This document shows, piece after piece, positions 26,848 to 33,131 of a DNA stretch of 33,281 bases. The stretch comes from Phycisphaeraceae bacterium. GTDB lineage: Bacteria > Planctomycetota > Phycisphaerae > Phycisphaerales > Phycisphaeraceae. The stretch lies in contig JAFIFY010000121.1 in the NCBI GenBank assembly GCA_020831765.1, positions 1 to 33,281 on the forward strand, read 5' to 3'. Below the pieces are notes generated by a model. That model did not search any database, was not told where the DNA came from, and saw only the letters and a program-made list of their open reading frames with translations. The position numbers were made by a program, and so were the translations under genes. Each line of letters starts with the position of its first letter. The first letter of the stretch is position 1.

Positions 26848-28020
26848 TCACCGCCCGCGCAAACGGCTGCGCCATGCCGCCGGTGATTGCCCATCAGCTT
26901 GGCGCATCGCTTTGGACAGGTTCTGGGCGTATCCAAATCCGCAGCGTTGGGCGATGGCATCCACCGATAGGTCGGTCTCAGCCAACAGCCGGCGGGCGGT
27001 GTTCAAGCGGACGCGGATGATCTCGGCGTGGGGCGTGCGGCCGAGTTGGCGACGAAAACGCAATTCCAGTTGACGGCGGGAGAGTGGCACATGGCGCAGC
27101 ACATCGCCGACGTTCCAGCCTTGGCAGGCATGTTCGGCGATGTAGCGCATCGCCCTGGCCACGATCAAATCCTCGATGGCCAGTACATCACTGGACTGGC
27201 GTGAAACCAGGTGCAGCGGCGGGAACTCGATGGGCACTTCCGGGGGCGGCTCGCCGGCCAGCATGCGATCGAGGATGCTCGCTGCCTCGTACCCGATCCG
27301 CCGCGCCCCGGTCTCGATGCTGCTCAGTGGCGGGTGGGCGATCTCGGTAAAGAGATCATCGTTATCCACCCCGATCACCGCCACCTCCTCGGGCACACCG
27401 ATACCAAGCTCAAAGCAGCACTGGTTCACAAGCCTGCCTTCATAGTCGTTGCGGGCAAAGAGGGCGATCGGCTTGGGCAGGTCTTGAATCCACTTCTGGA
27501 AGAGCGCCCACTCATCCGGCAGACGCCCGGAGCCGGCGGCGGTGACATCGAAAACCTCACTCTTCACCCCCGCCGCCTCCATGGTCCGGGTGAATCCGAG
27601 GCAGCGCTGAATATCCGTTCGGCCGGGGCCGCGGCGATAGAAGGCGGCTTGCCGGAAACCCTGTTCCAGAAAGTGCGTTGCCGCCATGCGGCCAAGGGCC
27701 TGATCATCGAGGCGCACCGTCGGCAGACCGGAGACATCCGGCAGGCTTCCCGAGACGTTGATGGTGGGAACCGTGGCGCGGTCCGGGTGGTGATATTCCT
27801 CGGGTGTGGTGAATCCGGCGATCAGGCCATCGATGCCGCGAGGACCGGTGCCTTCGACGGGCCTGTCCTCGATCAGGAAGATAAAGCGCCATGCGGTGTG
27901 CTGCCGCGCATAATCCATCACGCCGCGTGCAACCTCACGAAAGTGCCGCGCGGCCGTGCCGACCGCCAGACCGATCAGCGGCAGGCGTGAGCGGGACGAT
28001 GCTGAGCTTATTTCCGACAT
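26848..28020 (-). CDS. XylR-type AraC family transcriptional regulator
   Basis: A 390-residue protein with two domains. Residues 13-275 are a LacI/periplasmic-binding-type ligand domain (L-P-L-I-G-L-A-V-G at the start, G-I-D-G-L-I-A-G-F at 62-70, F-A-R-N-D-Y-E-G at 188-195, V-A-V-I-G-V-D-N-D-D at 213-222). Residues 285-385 are an AraC domain with two helix-turn-helix units (V-P-L-S-R-R-Q-L-E-L-R-F-R, I-A-Q-R-C-G-F-G-Y-A-Q-N-L). Planctomycetes use such regulators for sugar responses. The ATG at 28020 is chosen over an upstream in-frame start because the extra 64 residues are not family-like and would cover the control region. It is divergent from the PEP-CTERM gene. Confidence 0.9.
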   Translation of the reverse strand: MSEISSASSRSRLPLIGLAVGTAARHFREVARGVMDYARQHTAWRFIFLIEDRPVEGTGPRGIDGLIAGFTTPEEYHHPDRATVPTINVSGSLPDVSGLPTVRLDDQALGRMAATHFLEQGFRQAAFYRRGPGRTDIQRCLGFTRTMEAAGVKSEVFDVTAAGSGRLPDEWALFQKWIQDLPKPIALFARNDYEGRLVNQCCFELGIGVPEEVAVIGVDNDDLFTEIAHPPLSSIETGARRIGYEAASILDRMLAGEPPPEVPIEFPPLHLVSRQSSDVLAIEDLIVARAMRYIAEHACQGWNVGDVLRHVPLSRRQLELRFRRQLGRTPHAEIIRVRLNTARRLLAETDLSVDAIAQRCGFGYAQNLSKAMRQADGQSPAAWRSRLRGR

Positions 28021-28034
28021 AATTCCGGCCCTGA

Positions 28035-28068
28035 TTGCGCAATTTACTCGTAACTTAGCGCAAATTGT
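28035..28068. promoter_or_regulatory. candidate operator of the XylR-type regulator
   Basis: Two direct copies of GCGCAA followed by three A/T (28037-28045 and 28058-28066) lie exactly 21 bp apart, two helical turns, the usual layout of paired AraC half-sites. CAATTT and AAATTG also form an inverted pair across the same interval. A smaller inverted repeat CCAAA-ccga-TTTGG follows at 28077-28090. The site sits between the divergent regulator and PEP-CTERM genes, 15 nt from the regulator start. Confidence 0.55.
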
Positions 28069-28185
28069 ACTGGCATCCAAACCGATTTGGTGTATTCTTG
28101 AGGCTGAATCGTTCTGAATCGAGGCAATCGTCGTCAACGTTCGATGCGGCGGTTTCTGTTCGGCCCTTTCAAGGAGAAAGAGGAA

Positions 28186-28932
28186 ATGAATACCCGGAAT
28201 TGGTACCGGCAACCCCTATTGGTCGTCGCGGCGGCCGGAGCCCTGCTTGCCTGGACCACCAGCCCGGCCTCGGCGGCCATGCTGGAGTTCGAAGAGACCT
28301 TTGACAACAACACCGGATCGAACCAGCCCCTGAGCTCGGTAAGCCCGAGCTGGCAGGCAAACCTTGGCAGCGCCGGTCATCCGTTACCGGTTCCCGGCAG
28401 CAATACCAATGCGGAGATCGGTGGCGGTGTGGGCGGCGATGGCAATACGGGCTTCGTCTTTTTCTGGCCGGGCAACTCGGGGACGGTGGATGGAGGGTTG
28501 ATCTGGACCGAAACGAGCATCGATCGCGATGCCGCGGAGATCACTCGCTTTGTCTTCGATGTCAGCTCCAACAACTCTGACTCGCTGTGGCAAGTTGCCC
28601 TTCGGATTGGTGGCAATTGGTACGTCTCCAACCAGCAGGAGCCTACCCCGGGGGGCGGTGGGAGCGTGTGGGAGGAACAGAAACTGATCTTTTCCACAGA
28701 TGCCGCTGAGTGGGCCGAGCTTACCTTCAACCCCACGGTGGAGTTGGCTCGGGGCAGCACGCTGGCCGCGGACCTGCCTGACGGCGAGGTCACCGCGTTC
28801 GGCCTTTTCGCCATCACCCAGGGAAGCGACACGCAGCGCTTTGACAACTTCAAGGTGTACGTGGTCCCCGAGCCCGCATCTCTTGCCCTGCTGGGCGTGA
28901 GCGGGCTGTTGATGCTCAGCCGTCGACGATGA
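28186..28932 (+). CDS. PEP-CTERM sorting domain protein
   Basis: A 248-residue secreted protein. The ATG at 28186 follows AAGGAG and GAGG and opens a signal peptide (hydrophobic 11-24, A-S-A near 30). The body (35-220) is beta-rich with aromatic and Gly/Asn-rich strands and resembles a carbohydrate-binding-like sandwich; I assign no function. The C-terminus is V-P-E-P (227-230), a hydrophobic segment (A-L-L-G-V-S-G-L-L-M-L) and a final S-R-R-R, the signature recognised by exosortase for cell-surface sorting. The gene is divergent from the XylR-type regulator and ends in a strong terminator, so it is a single-gene unit probably under that regulator. Confidence 0.9.
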   Translation: MNTRNWYRQPLLVVAAAGALLAWTTSPASAAMLEFEETFDNNTGSNQPLSSVSPSWQANLGSAGHPLPVPGSNTNAEIGGGVGGDGNTGFVFFWPGNSGTVDGGLIWTETSIDRDAAEITRFVFDVSSNNSDSLWQVALRIGGNWYVSNQQEPTPGGGGSVWEEQKLIFSTDAAEWAELTFNPTVELARGSTLAADLPDGEVTAFGLFAITQGSDTQRFDNFKVYVVPEPASLALLGVSGLLMLSRRR

Positions 28933-28991
28933 GTGAAACTCAAAGGCTGATCACCGCCATCCGGCGGCACACAATTGAACCTCACTTGAAC

Positions 28992-29020
28992 ACGGGAGCC
29001 TCCGGGGCTCCCGTTTTTTT
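28992..29020 (+). terminator. intrinsic terminator after the PEP-CTERM gene
   Basis: ACGGGAGCC (28992-29000) and GGCTCCCGT (29006-29014) form a perfect 9-bp GC-rich stem with a 5-nt loop, followed at once by a run of seven T (29014-29020). It lies 60 nt after the stop codon. Confidence 0.95.
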
Positions 29021-29127
29021 CATTTGCATGGCGTTGCGGAATCTTCACCAGATCGGCATCAGAAACCGATGGCGCCCGTTGGAAAAGGGGATACACTCTT
29101 GCACAGACACGAAACAGGCCTCTGAAC

Positions 29128-30069
29128 ATGACCCGGACGCATACCGCACCCACAGCCGCCGACCTGCTCTACCTTGCCACCCAGCCCACCGATGGGCATA
29201 CCCCCGACACACCCGAACGGCACGAATTGCTGCACGGAAAGGGTTACTTCGTGGTCAGGGGCATTCTGAGCGAGGATGATCGGCAGGCCATCAGGGAGCG
29301 GTTGCGCATGGTGTGCCGAAACATCGATTACTATCGCCAACATATCGACCTGATCAAGGAAGTGCCCGATGAGGCGCTTCGCAATCATCCGGACCCGTTG
29401 CTTCGATTCACCTGGGTCAATGAGATCGGCTTTCGTGATGAAGTGCTATGGGAACGTTGCGCAGCGCATCCGAAGCTGCTCGAAGTGGCGCGCAAGGTGG
29501 TCGGCGAGACGATCTACCCCATGAACGGCGGCGGCTTTTTTCTTAAGCCGCCGCGCAGTCAGAGCACGGTGCCCTGGCATCAGGACGCCAGCCCCTTCCG
29601 CATTCCACCGGAGGATGGTCAACCCAGAAACCCGCTTGTGTTCGACTACTGGCTGGGCATCGATGCGGCGACATCGGAGAACGGCTGCCTGCAACTGGTG
29701 CCCGGCTCGCAGAAACTCGGCCGCCTCGAACACCACGACAAAGGCGGAGTGTTTCCGGAGTTGGAGCATCCGACGCAATACGGCTTCAGCGAAAGCGACA
29801 TTGTCAGCATTCCACTTGAAGCCGGTGACCTGCTCGTCTGGCATCAGGACATGATGCACTACAGCGACCCGAACCGGTCGGACCATCAACGGATCGGCAA
29901 GGCCAGTGTGTATATGTCCGGCCCCCAGGAGCAGGAAGTGCGCCAGCGCCTGGCCAAACGTGAACCGAACATGGGCATCAACCGCCGGCGGCCAGCGCTT
30001 TGCCTGAACGGCAAGATTCAACCCCTACGGCCCGACGCCATCATCCACCCACCGGAATCGGGTGGTTGA
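29128..30069 (+). CDS. phytanoyl-CoA dioxygenase (PhyH) family protein
   Basis: A 313-residue Fe(II)/2-oxoglutarate-dependent oxygenase. The double-stranded beta-helix shows W-H-Q-D (150-153) with iron ligands His151 and Asp153, N-G-C-L-Q-L-V-P-G-S (185-194), and H-Q-D-M-M-H-Y-S-D (239-247) with His244 as third ligand; Arg255 is suitably placed for 2-oxoglutarate. Relatives hydroxylate fatty acyl chains, ectoine or small natural products, and planctomycetes carry many of unknown substrate. There is no signal peptide. The upstream gene ends in a terminator and 107 nt separate the two, so this gene has its own promoter, which I could not place. Immediately after its stop codon begins a recombinase relic. 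Confidence 0.9.
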   Translation: MTRTHTAPTAADLLYLATQPTDGHTPDTPERHELLHGKGYFVVRGILSEDDRQAIRERLRMVCRNIDYYRQHIDLIKEVPDEALRNHPDPLLRFTWVNEIGFRDEVLWERCAAHPKLLEVARKVVGETIYPMNGGGFFLKPPRSQSTVPWHQDASPFRIPPEDGQPRNPLVFDYWLGIDAATSENGCLQLVPGSQKLGRLEHHDKGGVFPELEHPTQYGFSESDIVSIPLEAGDLLVWHQDMMHYSDPNRSDHQRIGKASVYMSGPQEQEVRQRLAKREPNMGINRRRPALCLNGKIQPLRPDAIIHPPESGG

Positions 30070-30703: not shown

Positions 30704-31190
30704 TTATTCCGCACCTCCCCCGTTTTCTTTCTGCATCGTTTCTGCAAGGACCCACTTTGAACATCTTCTGGATCCGGTGTTCCGGATTAGGTCAGCCCGG
30801 CGCATTGCGCTCAGGAGGTTGCTGATCTTCTCGGCCTTCTGGTCCGCGTTCAGGGCGTCGCTGAGCTTATCCAGCAGCAGTTTGTCAATTTCCATGCGTG
30901 ACGCCGATTCAAATTTCTGGAGGTAGTCCAGCACCTGCTTCTTGTAGAATTCGTCGTCTCGCCCTCGAGTACGGATGTAGTCGGCCTGGGTCGCCGCTGC
31001 CTTGGCAACCGAGGCCGAGACATGCAGATTTGGCTTGCGACCCTCGATCAGCCCCATCTTGCGGAGGCGGGGTAGAGACTGGTCGTCGATGGTTAGCCGC
31101 TTCTGAACGCGGTCAAGCGCACACACATCTTCAAGCGGCAGATCAGGCCATAAAATCCGTGTAGGGGCTCGCAGGTAGACGTTGCGGTGC
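30704..31190 (-). pseudogene. C-terminal part of an AlbA/RecG-like ATP-binding regulator
   Basis: The minus-strand frame is open from about 31190 without a usable start and ends at 30704. It reads I-L-W-P-D-L-P-L-E-D-V-C-A-L-D-R-V-Q-K-R, then R-K-M-G-L-I-E-G-R-K-P-N-L-H-V-S, D-D-E-F-Y-K-K-Q-V-L-D-Y-L and I-D-K-L-L-L-D-K-L-S-D-A-L. This matches the C-terminal winged-helix region of schlafen/AlbA-type (RecG-like) transcriptional regulators, which follow an N-terminal AlbA domain and an ATPase-like middle. More than half of the protein is missing and an in-frame TAG lies just upstream, so it is a relic. Confidence 0.7.
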
Positions 31191-31469: not shown

Positions 31470-32588
31470 TCAAACCCCGAGCGAGTCAGCATCGGGTAAG
31501 CGATAGCTCGTGCTCCGACCACCGCCGGGGTTCTGCATCAGAACGCCGCGCTGCACGAGTTCACGAATATCACGCAGTGCCGTGTCCTGAGAGCACTTGG
31601 TCAGCTTGGCATACTTCGAGGTCGTCAGATGCCCCTTGAATCCGCTCAGCATCCGGTTGATGACCAGGCGTTGCCGGTCATTGATTGGATTGCGGTTGAC
31701 CCATCGCCAGAGCCGGGCCTTATAGAGCACCGCCGACAGCGTGTCCTGCGAGCCGTCGATCGCACGGTCGAGACAGCCGAGGAACCATTCCAGCCAAGGC
31801 GTGATGTCCAGACCGCCACGCTGGGTTGCTTCCAGCCGAAGGTAGTAGTCCTTCCGCTCGGCCTCGATCTGGGATGACATGCTGTAAAAACGCTCTTTGA
31901 TGCCGTCCGCTCGGGCCAGGGCCATGTCCGCGATCGCGCGGGCGATGCGGCCGTTGCCATCCTCAAATGGATGAATGGTGACGAACCAGAAGTGAGCAAG
32001 CGCGGCTTTGAGAACGGGGTCGATGGACGACGGTGCGTTGAACCAGTCCAAGAACATCGACATCTCTGCTTCGAGCCGCTGGGCAGCCGGGGCCTCGTAA
32101 TGGACCTTCTCCCGACCGATCGGGCCGGAGACAACACGCATCGCACCGGCCTCTTGCGGGCGCCACGCACCGACGGTGATGCGTCGCATCCCGCTTCGTG
32201 CGGTCGGGAACAGGGAGGCGTGCCAGCCGAACAAACGGTCCTCGGTCAGCGGAGCTGCGAAGTGCTGAGTCGCATCGAGCATCATCTCGACAACGCCCTC
32301 GACATCGCGCCCCGCGACGGGAAGCCCACCGGTGTCGAGCCCGAGACGCCGAGCGATGGAGGAGCGCACCTCGTCCGCGTTGAGCGACTCGCCCTCGATC
32401 GCCGATGACTTGACCACATCGCTGGTGAGCACGGTGAGGCTGGCCTCGGCCTGGAGGTCGAATCCCAGGGTGCCCATCCTGCCGAGTAGAAGCCCCTGCT
32501 TGTGACGCACAGCGGCCAAAGCCGGTGACAGGACTTTGGCGTCCCATGAAAACCTGGGCCAATCGGGTTTTTCATGAATATATGGCAT
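31470..32588 (-). CDS. Fic family protein (AMP-transferase type) with N-terminal inhibitory motif
   Basis: A 372-residue protein. The ATG at 32588 is preferred to a GTG two codons upstream because GAGCGG precedes it. Residues 1-55 match the DUF4172-type start. S-S-A-I-E-G-E (61-67) is the (S/T)xxxE(G/N) autoinhibitory helix, whose Glu65 would block ATP binding. The Fic core has I-H-P-F-E-D-G-N-G-R (205-214) with catalytic His206. The C-terminal 70 residues form a winged helix (K-C-S-Q-D-T-A-L-R-D-I-R-E-L), as in Fic proteins that bind DNA. Fic enzymes transfer AMP to target hydroxyls. No separate antitoxin is adjacent, consistent with built-in inhibition. Five copies of an 11-bp element lie directly upstream. 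Confidence 0.92.
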   Translation of the reverse strand: MPYIHEKPDWPRFSWDAKVLSPALAAVRHKQGLLLGRMGTLGFDLQAEASLTVLTSDVVKSSAIEGESLNADEVRSSIARRLGLDTGGLPVAGRDVEGVVEMMLDATQHFAAPLTEDRLFGWHASLFPTARSGMRRITVGAWRPQEAGAMRVVSGPIGREKVHYEAPAAQRLEAEMSMFLDWFNAPSSIDPVLKAALAHFWFVTIHPFEDGNGRIARAIADMALARADGIKERFYSMSSQIEAERKDYYLRLEATQRGGLDITPWLEWFLGCLDRAIDGSQDTLSAVLYKARLWRWVNRNPINDRQRLVINRMLSGFKGHLTTSKYAKLTKCSQDTALRDIRELVQRGVLMQNPGGGRSTSYRLPDADSLGV

Positions 32589-32603
32589 AAACACCGCTCA
32601 TCT

Positions 32604-32684
32604 TGCGGTGATTATCGGCAGTATTCGCCGCACGGTCAAGTATTCGTCGCACAATGTGCGGAGAATAGGAAGATATTCACCGCA
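32604..32684. promoter_or_regulatory. five-copy 11-bp element upstream of the Fic gene
   Basis: The consensus TA(T/A)TC(G/A/T)(C/T)CGCA occurs at 32622-32632, 32641-32651 and 32674-32684 on the plus strand, and inverted at 32604-32614 and 32657-32667. Start-to-start distances are 16-19 bp. The array starts 15 nt from the Fic start codon, overlapping the likely promoter. It looks like a multi-site operator, perhaps for the winged helix of the Fic protein itself. Confidence 0.75.
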
Positions 32685-33059
32685 AAGCGGGACGCTGTCA
32701 TGATGGAACTGTGGCCGAGTTCCTCACTTTCTCTCGCTCTTCAACTCCTGATCCAGTGCCTTGAACATGGCGAGTCTTCCGGCGCTTACCGGTCAGGGCA
32801 ACAAGCTGTGGCGCTCGTGCCCGGTCGAGGTCGGCCGGCTGATGTGTCGTTACAACCCAATCCTGAACGCGCTCTTAAACCGTGTATGCGGCGTCAGCAA
32901 GACACGACCCAAGGTTGCGGTCGTGGCGAGAGCGCGCACCCGAGCCTTGCACTACATTTCGGGTCGATCTTGCACTACAAAGGTCGATTTGACGCCCGAG
33001 TTTTGTAGTGGCTATTCTTACGATGTTACGCAAATCTATTATTGTCAGAAATTTACGAA
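32685..33059. other. gene-free stretch between the Fic promoter and tRNA-Gly
   Basis: No convincing gene. Two plus-strand ORFs overlap here, but one translates the antisense of the tRNA at its end and neither has a family match I can see. The right part holds a direct repeat, listed separately. The last 60 nt before the tRNA are A+T-rich. Confidence 0.55.
32946..32988 (+). repeat. two-unit direct repeat CTTGCACTACA ... GGTCGAT
   Basis: CTTGCACTACA at 32946-32956 and 32969-32979 are identical. Each is followed by GGTCGAT, at 32962-32968 and 32982-32988. The unit therefore repeats with a small length change between its parts. It lies about 70 nt from the 3' end of tRNA-Gly and shares TTGCAC with the repeats at 30385-30404. 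Confidence 0.7.
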
Positions 33060-33131
33060 AGCGGGTGACCGGACTCGAACCGGCAACATTCAGCTTGGGA
33101 AGCTGACACTCTACCATTGAGTTACACCCGC
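33060..33131 (-). tRNA. tRNA-Gly (anticodon CCC)
   Basis: Read on the minus strand, a 72-nt cloverleaf is complete. The acceptor arms GCGGGTG and CACCCGC pair perfectly. The D-loop holds AATGGTAGA, the anticodon arm TCAGC-TTCCCAA-GCTGA gives anticodon CCC, and the T-arm CCGG-TTCGAGT-CCGG is canonical. The discriminator base is T and CCA is not encoded. The 3' end faces the relic-rich region 30071-31438, as expected if an element once used this tRNA as attachment site. Confidence 0.95.

What the first reader, a model, noticed from the sequence alone, without database searches (positions are those of the whole stretch)
32604..32684. Five 11-bp sites controlling a Fic gene
Three direct and two inverted copies of a TATTC-N-CCGCA-type element occur in 81 bp immediately upstream of the start codon. 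The Fic protein carries its own winged helix, so it may bind this array and repress itself, with target AMPylation and DNA binding linked. Multi-site arrays suggest cooperative, dose-sensitive control.
Basis: partly seen in the sequence, partly recalled or inferred. Interest (0 to 1): 0.6.

Follow-up and report, generated by a model that had tools for sequence, protein, structure and literature searches.

The report
Fic enzyme's own repeated operator sites
A bacterial enzyme that tags proteins with AMP carries its own DNA-reading domain, and the repeated sequence in front of its gene is very probably the switch that domain binds to hold its own production down, a pairing seen in relatives across bacteria.

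Summary
Five 11-bp sites (three +, two −) lie at 32604-32684, 15 bp upstream of the Fic ATG (32588, minus strand); 20,000 shuffles of these 81 nt never gave more than one. A degenerate sixth site reaches the start codon, so the array reads as two "> < >" triplets. A sigma-70-like promoter (TTGACC-N17-GATAAT) is embedded.

The array is a family trait: 84 of 88 homologues have at least three sites in the 200 nt upstream (0.2% of shuffles). In two genome scans all 24 exact paired-site places lay at or about 1 kb before a fic gene or remnant. Operator sequence follows the recognition helix. Asp335 goes with C at half-site position 3 (123/124 callable loci), Ala335 with A (50/51); a later viral set gave 48/48 and 12/12. 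With close relatives paired, residue 335 still ranks first of 323 columns.

Best reading: the Fic protein binds this array with its winged helix and represses itself. CccR (two sites) is the experimental precedent. Binding, repression and any link to AMPylation are untested here. New variant of a known kind.

The parts
31470..32588 (-). fic gene: DUF4172 + Fic + C-terminal winged helix, 372 aa, start ATG at 32588
   Evidence: translation; PF13776 E 4.4e-33 and PF02661 E 8.9e-18, both over cut-off; 44% identity, TM 0.85 to 8cil_A
32391..32408 (-). class II inhibitory motif SSAIEG (residues 61-66)
   Evidence: read from P0001; fits the (S/T)xxxE(G/N) definition quoted in PMC10628234
31947..31973 (-). 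Fic catalytic motif HPFEDGNGR (residues 206-214)
   Evidence: read from P0001; fits HxFx(D/E)(A/G)N(G/K)R as quoted
31497..31679 (-). winged-helix domain (residues 304-364)
   Evidence: AlphaFold2 model, mean pLDDT 90.9: helices 304-314, 323-330, 334-346 and two short strands 351-352 and 362-363
31551..31589 (-). recognition helix (residues 334-346); Asp335 (and less surely Ser333, Gln334) at its N-terminus varies with operator bases
31500..31538 (-). wing hairpin (residues 351-363) with Gly357, which varies with half-site positions 7-8 (not separated from ancestry)
32674..32684 (-). half-site 1 '>' TGCGGTGAATA
   Evidence: 0 mismatches
32657..32667 (+). half-site 2 '<' (TGCGGAGAATA on + strand)
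   Evidence: 0 mismatches
32641..32651 (-). half-site 3 '>' TGCGACGAATA
   Evidence: 1 mismatch
32622..32632 (-). half-site 4 '>' TGCGGCGAATA, in the -35/-10 spacer
   Evidence: 0 mismatches; position against the promoter
32604..32614 (+). half-site 5 '<' (TGCGGTGATTA on + strand), overlaps the -10 hexamer
   Evidence: 1 mismatch to TGCGGNGAATA
32588..32598 (-). degenerate half-site 6 '>' AGCGGTGTTTA, ending on the first base of the start codon
   Evidence: read from the sequence; sits where many homologues have their '>' site at about -10
32634..32639 (-). -35 hexamer TTGACC
   Evidence: TTG is the commonest triplet at this place in 35 aligned loci
32611..32616 (-). -10 hexamer GATAAT, 17-bp spacer
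   Evidence: 10 of 12 matches, the only promoter-like hit in 301 nt (0.1 expected); TATAaT consensus

Best explanation
The array is the operator of a self-repressing Fic gene. The Fic protein's own C-terminal winged helix (recognition helix 334-346 and wing) reads the half-site TGCGGNGAATA. Six half-sites in two '> < >' triplets cover the -35/-10 spacer, the -10 box, the probable transcription start and the stretch up to the start codon, so protein bound there would block RNA polymerase and hold fic expression low. The gene plus array is a self-contained unit found in many hosts without a conserved partner gene. Shown here: site presence, position over a promoter-like sequence, conservation, restriction of exact operator pairs to fic loci, and co-variation of operator bases with the recognition helix. 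Inferred: physical binding, repression, cooperativity. Speculative: that array-bound dimers are in a different enzymatic state from free protein, as reported for CbFic2 with random DNA.
For: Array versus chance: 5 sites, at most 1 in 20,000 shuffles. Conservation: at least three sites in 84 of 88 homologues, 80 of them from at least ten phyla by record title. Control: 0 of 19 weakly matching loci (L012-L030, other Fic families and one fragment) against 76 of 80 homologues have three sites in 110 nt. Specificity: 5 places in 294 genomes and 19 in the genomes of 50 of the 80 homologues, all 24 at fic loci; reversed control patterns 0. Promoter: TTGACC-N17-GATAAT; consensus TTG-N20-TATAaT around the proximal pair in 35 aligned loci; pair spacing 18 in 104 of 109 loci with a pair. 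Own reader: Asp335 with C3 123/124, Ala335 with A3 50/51; later viral contigs 48/48 and 12/12; residue 335 rank 1 of 323 columns in 92 close-relative pairs (r 0.62, next 0.41). His334 goes with T5 in 8 of 9 loci against 4 of 141, including 3 of 3 loci fetched after the rule was seen. Residues 333-335 lie at the start of the modelled recognition helix, 357 in the wing. No conserved neighbour gene in 80 loci. Precedent: CccR footprint and autorepression (PMC9755527).
Against: No binding or expression data. The Asp/non-Asp switch at 335 is a single change on a tree built without the helix-turn-helix, so its counts are not independent; the contrast answers this only in part, and there residues 334 (rank 100 for position 5, rank 4 for position 6), 333 (rank 9 for position 4) and 357 (rank 6 for positions 7-8) do not lead. 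In one search positions 5, 9 and 11 are led by columns outside the winged helix. His334/T5 has only 3 independent supported pairs, too few for p<0.05, and the 3 later loci come from the phylum of an earlier His334 locus. Only exact duplicates were removed from the viral set. Some loci fall short: 26 of 135 D-type have no proximal pair by my criteria, 5 of 155 no TGCNNNGAATA site, 53 of 241 no scored pair, L078 no site. The exact-pair scan found a match in only 15 of 50 genomes known to carry fic, so it cannot exclude weaker sites elsewhere. Site positions fit repression, but activation was not excluded.
Confidence: 0.85

Rival explanations
1. The array is bound by the Fic protein (as in the best explanation, with which this overlaps), but mainly as the DNA ligand that sets the enzyme's state (AMPylation versus deAMPylation), or for activation; repression is minor.
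For: CbFic2, the closest solved relative (44% identity, TM 0.85), changes activity and dimerises on DNA (PMC10628234).
Against: Half-sites sit in the -35/-10 spacer, on the -10 box and up to the start codon, the classical repressor positions; CccR represses from its sites.
Confidence: 0.12
2. Another regulator, encoded elsewhere in the host, binds the array.
For: No binding experiment exists for this protein.
Against: The array occurs upstream of fic in at least ten phyla and in viral contigs (52 of 56 D-type loci) without a shared neighbour (80 genome loci); the exact pairs found belong to fic loci; operator bases follow this protein's recognition helix.
Confidence: 0.05
3. The repeats are a recombination, transposition or replication element, or an RNA hairpin.
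For: Direct and inverted short repeats near a tRNA gene; relatives of the gene are found on plasmids and viral contigs.
Against: Similar register to a promoter and start codon in many loci; direct as well as inverted copies; the expected transcription start lies near the end of half-site 5, so most of the array would not be transcribed from this promoter (inference).
Confidence: 0.02

Closest known systems
CccR of Yersinia pseudotuberculosis (PMC9755527; abstract, sections 9 and 11 and part 1 of section 10 read)
   Same: Class II Fic with C-terminal helix-turn-helix that footprints on and represses its own promoter; sites near -35 and -10; no immunity protein found in neighbouring ORFs
   Different: Two 10-bp boxes with a 26-bp spacer against five or six 11-bp half-sites of another sequence here; low similarity (7xux_A, taken to be CccR from its length and date, not confirmed by a call: E 3.9e-6); CccR is a T6SS effector, not tested here
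CbFic2 of Coxiella burnetii, 8cil (PMC10628234; abstract, passages and discussion part 1 read)
   Same: Same domain order; closest solved structure (44% identity, TM 0.85); DNA-binding winged helix
   Different: Studied with random DNA and as a modifier of host histones; in the parts read no specific sequence is given and finding one is called a future aim
SoFic / EcSofic anti-phage Fic (PMC12249575; abstract, outline and passages read)
   Same: Fic with C-terminal regulatory domain; PADLOC SoFic profile hits P0001 (E 5.7e-46)
   Different: NCBIfam SoFic equivalog 51.8 bits against cut-off 550; EcSofic has a downstream antitoxin gene, whereas no neighbour is conserved here
Type II toxin-antitoxin autoregulation (recalled as a class)
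   Same: A toxin-like protein's own promoter carries a repeated operator
   Different: Here enzyme and DNA-binding domain are one chain and no antitoxin gene is conserved nearby

Membership tests
DUF4172-Fic-winged-helix class II Fic (CbFic2-like) | DUF4172 and Fic domains over curated cut-offs | tested here: met
   113.9 bits (cut-off 25) and 65.4 bits (cut-off 24)
DUF4172-Fic-winged-helix class II Fic (CbFic2-like) | Fic motif and N-terminal inhibitory motif | tested here: met
   HPFEDGNGR at 206-214 and SSAIEG at 61-66 in P0001 against definitions
DUF4172-Fic-winged-helix class II Fic (CbFic2-like) | C-terminal winged helix | tested here: met
   AlphaFold2 model and 8cil match; the Pfam domain hit PF22168 alone is below its cut-off (23 against 27 bits)
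Self-repressing Fic (CccR type) | binds and represses its own promoter | not testable with these tools
   only indirect evidence:
Self-repressing Fic (CccR type) | two inverted 10-bp boxes, 26-bp spacer | tested here: not met
   five or six 11-bp half-sites, different sequence and spacing
SoFic defence system | SoFic equivalog score over cut-off | tested here: not met
   51.8 bits against 550
SoFic defence system | PADLOC SoFic profile | tested here: inconclusive
   E 5.7e-46, no cut-off shown
SoFic defence system | anti-phage activity | not testable with these tools
   needs an experiment
Type II toxin-antitoxin module | adjacent antitoxin gene | tested here: not met
   among 80 homologous loci no ORF family (50 aa or more, E 1e-6, up to about 1.2 kb on either side, less at contig ends) is shared by more than 3; a private partner of the window gene alone was not sought

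The most novel reading that the evidence does not exclude
The promoter array is both operator and allosteric cofactor. Fic dimers parked on the six half-sites are held in the deAMPylating or silent state while repressing fic, and loss of the DNA sites (for example when a phage degrades or titrates DNA) frees monomeric AMPylase. A whole family of solitary Fic enzymes would share this circuit, with a readable residue-to-base code (335, 334, 357) that keeps co-resident copies insulated.
Probability: 0.15. Interest if true: 0.85.

Novelty: new variant of a known kind. Interest (0 to 1): 0.6.

Why it matters
The CccR paper says nearly nothing is known of how class II Fic proteins are controlled, and the CbFic2 paper names a specific binding sequence as wanted. 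This gives a concrete operator for a large CbFic2-like clade and predicts which residues read which bases, so sequence-specific binding, self-repression and a DNA-linked enzymatic switch can all be tested with short DNA pieces. It also suggests that solitary Fic enzymes carry their own restraint when they move between hosts.

Tried and rejected
Loose single-site counting was rejected: at up to 2 mismatches the window has no excess of sites. Reading the array as five equal sites gave way to two triplets once homologues were lined up.

A phylogenetic sign test for His334/T5 and for Q/P334/A6 was tried and was not significant, with few independent pairs. Residue 357 against position 7 gave 2 concordant of 4 independent pairs, also not significant. 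Mutual information over all loci points to residues 335, 333, 334 and 357 for positions 3, 4, 6, 7 and 10, but other columns lead for positions 5, 9 and 11 and share the lead at 8, and it mixes deep ancestry with contact; I rely on the paired contrast, where only residue 335 clearly leads. The A-type wing rule (Leu/Arg357 with 'AT' at positions 7-8) was not separated from ancestry.

A conserved partner gene was looked for and not found. The + strand ORF 32574-33008 covers the array and was set aside as mechanical, untested. Literature: searches listed no paper that by title and abstract start describes this operator or a family-wide one; some searches listed only the top 20 of 37, 119, 162, 159 and 42 papers.

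Loci dropped before counts: one search used 188 of 211 loci (no or truncated ORF, short upstream, identical); one search used 241 of 271; one search used 71 of 80 (7 duplicates, 2 short upstream). Base counts use only loci whose best pair passes a score (124 of 188; 188 of 241; 60 of 71). One search was given 50 of the 80 homologue loci; the fold alignment 25 of the 80.

Full report
What is there. The Fic gene runs from ATG 32588 to the stop at 31470 on the minus strand: 372 aa with DUF4172 (residues 3-84), a Fic domain (113-224) and a C-terminal winged helix. The model has mean pLDDT 90.9, and its best structural match is 8cil, CbFic2 of Coxiella burnetii (chain A 44% identity, TM 0.85). They are the only sites with at most one mismatch in the window, and 20,000 dinucleotide shuffles of the 81 nt never gave more than one. 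The own genome holds 12 exact TGCGGNGAWTA half-sites, 4 of them here and the other 8 single; the pattern read backwards gives 3.

Layout. Read in the gene's direction the half-site is TGCGGNGAATA ('>'), and the order is > < > then > <, with a degenerate sixth '>' (AGCGGTGTTTA, 32598-32588) that ends on the first base of the start codon. The common plan in homologues is '>' at about -98, '<' -80, '>' -64, then '>' -44, '<' -26, '>' -10 from the ATG; many have only part of it. A sigma-70-like promoter lies inside: TTGACC at 32639-32634, a 17-bp spacer that holds half-site 4, and GATAAT at 32616-32611 that overlaps half-site 5. It is the only promoter-like hit in 301 nt, with 0.1 expected. Among 135 D-type loci of the larger set, 109 have a proximal pair within 75 nt of the start, spaced 18 bp in 104; the 35 that could be aligned in full show a TTG -35 element, 17 bp, and TATAaT.

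Conservation. One scan of genome contigs gave the 80 best homologues (53-77% identity) from at least ten phyla by title; a scan of the own genome and 60 relatives gave 8 more close ones, L002-L009. Of these 88, 87 have at least two and 84 at least three sites within 200 nt upstream; shuffled upstreams average 0.25 sites, and 0.2% reach three (recounted without the window itself). L078 has none, and L061, L093 and L110 have two. As a control, 0 of 19 loci that match P0001 only weakly or in part (L012-L030: other Fic families, and L012, a fragment with the winged helix) have three sites within 110 nt anywhere in the locus, against 76 of 80 homologues.

Specificity. Scanning 294 genomes of the window's phylum for a convergent half-site pair gave five places in five genomes; scanning the genomes of 50 of the 80 homologues with a slightly looser pattern gave 19 places in 15 genomes. 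Patterns read backwards gave none. All 24 places belong to fic loci. They include second copies of 63-64% identity in two genomes, a fic remnant, and one extra array about 1 kb upstream of a fic start, in front of two small ORFs. So the exact-pair scans show no other target gene, and the regulon looks private. But 35 of 50 genomes that carry fic had no exact pair, so these scans miss most real arrays and do not exclude weaker sites elsewhere.

Who reads it. PF13776 searches in five groups of genomes gave a broader set: 148 from the phylum of the Chitinophaga locus, 299 from that of the Bradyrhizobium locus, 294 of the window's phylum, 217 from that of an Acidobacteria locus and 213 from that of a Verrucomicrobiia locus (extra stretches). 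With the earlier loci, 241 of 271 remained after removing truncated and identical rows. A convergent pair beginning TG, found without using the rest of the motif, scores 8 or more in 188 of 241 loci against 5 of 1,205 shuffles. Among those 188, proteins with Asp at 335 (S-x-D-T-A-x-R-D) have C at half-site position 3 in both arms in 123 of 124 loci. Those with Ala there (A-T-A-T-R-D/H) have A in both arms in 50 of 51, with operators such as TGAGCCGAATA, TGAGCTATAAA or TGAGCGATAGA. A set of 71 viral-contig loci, fetched after the rule was fixed and cleared of exact duplicates only, gave 48 of 48 and 12 of 12 among 60 with a scored pair; 52 of 56 D-type and 1 of 14 A-type loci have three or more TGCGG-type sites, although 6 of 14 A-type have two, their own sites being two mismatches away.

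How far this goes. On a tree made without the winged helix the 335 switch is one change, so raw counts overstate the evidence. With 92 non-overlapping pairs of close relatives and divergence regressed out, residue 335 is rank 1 of 323 protein columns for half-site position 3 (r 0.62, next 0.41); 334 ranks 4 for position 6 and 357 ranks 6 for positions 7-8; positions 4 and 5 are not led by the helix. A finer rule appeared inside the D-type: His334 with TGCGT. It holds in 8 of 9 His334 loci against 4 of 141 others (Fisher 8e-10, ancestry not removed), including 3 of 3 loci and 10 of 10 sites fetched after the rule was seen, though from the phylum of an earlier His334 locus; only three independent supported pairs exist. 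The viral set held no His334 locus. In the model these residues lie at the start of the recognition helix (334-346), and 357 lies in the wing, where a winged helix would touch DNA.

Mechanism. The most likely working is self-repression: Fic protein binds the half-sites over its promoter and shuts off its own gene. [quoted passage not shown] Its boxes start 36 bp apart; the inner '<' and '>' half-sites are 35 bp apart here and about 36 in the common layout. That may reflect the same dimer span, but this is inference from a single comparison. CbFic2 dimerises and shifts from AMPylation to deAMPylation on DNA, tested with random sequences (PMC10628234); the CccR authors found regulation and toxicity independent. 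Whether the enzyme's activity is tied to this array is open.

Context. The gene looks solitary: no neighbour ORF family is shared by more than 3 of 80 loci. Matches to the protein occur on 592 of 72,556 plasmid records, 50 of them at 60-80% identity, and in viral contigs; arrays were checked on the viral contigs, not on the plasmids. PADLOC's SoFic profile hits the protein, but the NCBIfam SoFic equivalog cut-off is far from met, so an anti-phage role is possible and untested.

Novelty. Autorepression by a Fic protein is known for CccR. The six-half-site promoter array, its spread over a large CbFic2-like clade and the residue-to-base correspondence were not seen in the listings of the literature searches, which cover open-licence papers only and in five cases showed only the top 20. 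I call it a new variant of a known kind.

Noticed in passing
L131 3895-3939 (contig of the L091 genome): A second array of the same half-sites lies about 1 kb upstream of the fic start, in front of two small, apparently hydrophobic ORFs that precede fic on the same strand; a possible second target of the same protein.
   Followed up: partly
L133 2881-3116: A fic remnant (43% identity over residues 3-51 only) still keeps an operator pair upstream.
   Followed up: partly
L132 and L134: Two genomes carry a second fic copy (63-64% identity to the window protein), each with its own operator pair.
   Followed up: partly
L010, L201, L205, L208, L211, L231 and other A-type loci, upstream of fic: A-type Fic genes use operators that begin TGAG or TGAT and a different plan (> < ... 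> <) in which the last half-site often runs into the start codon (...CTCATG).
   Followed up: partly
L090, L093, L110, L140, L194 upstream of fic: Lys or Arg at residue 334 goes with some TGCAA- or TGCAAATA-type sites in four loci, but L194 (Arg) has TGCGG-type sites; too few cases to test.
   Followed up: no
L012 1501-1716: A stretch 63% identical to residues 293-364 in a 135-aa open frame: a winged-helix piece of this family without the enzyme part.
   Followed up: no
window 33060-33131 (-): A tRNA-Gly (ccc) gene lies just upstream of the fic array on the same strand, a common place for integrated DNA; attachment repeats were not looked for.
   Followed up: no
window 26848-30069: A protein with a C-terminal VPEPASLALLG...RRR tail (PEP-CTERM-like, recalled) lies between a phytanoyl-CoA dioxygenase gene and, on the other strand, a sugar-binding plus AraC-type regulator.
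   Followed up: no
window 30704-31126 (-): A 140-aa ORF downstream of fic has no Pfam match; what lies between it and fic was not examined.
   Followed up: no
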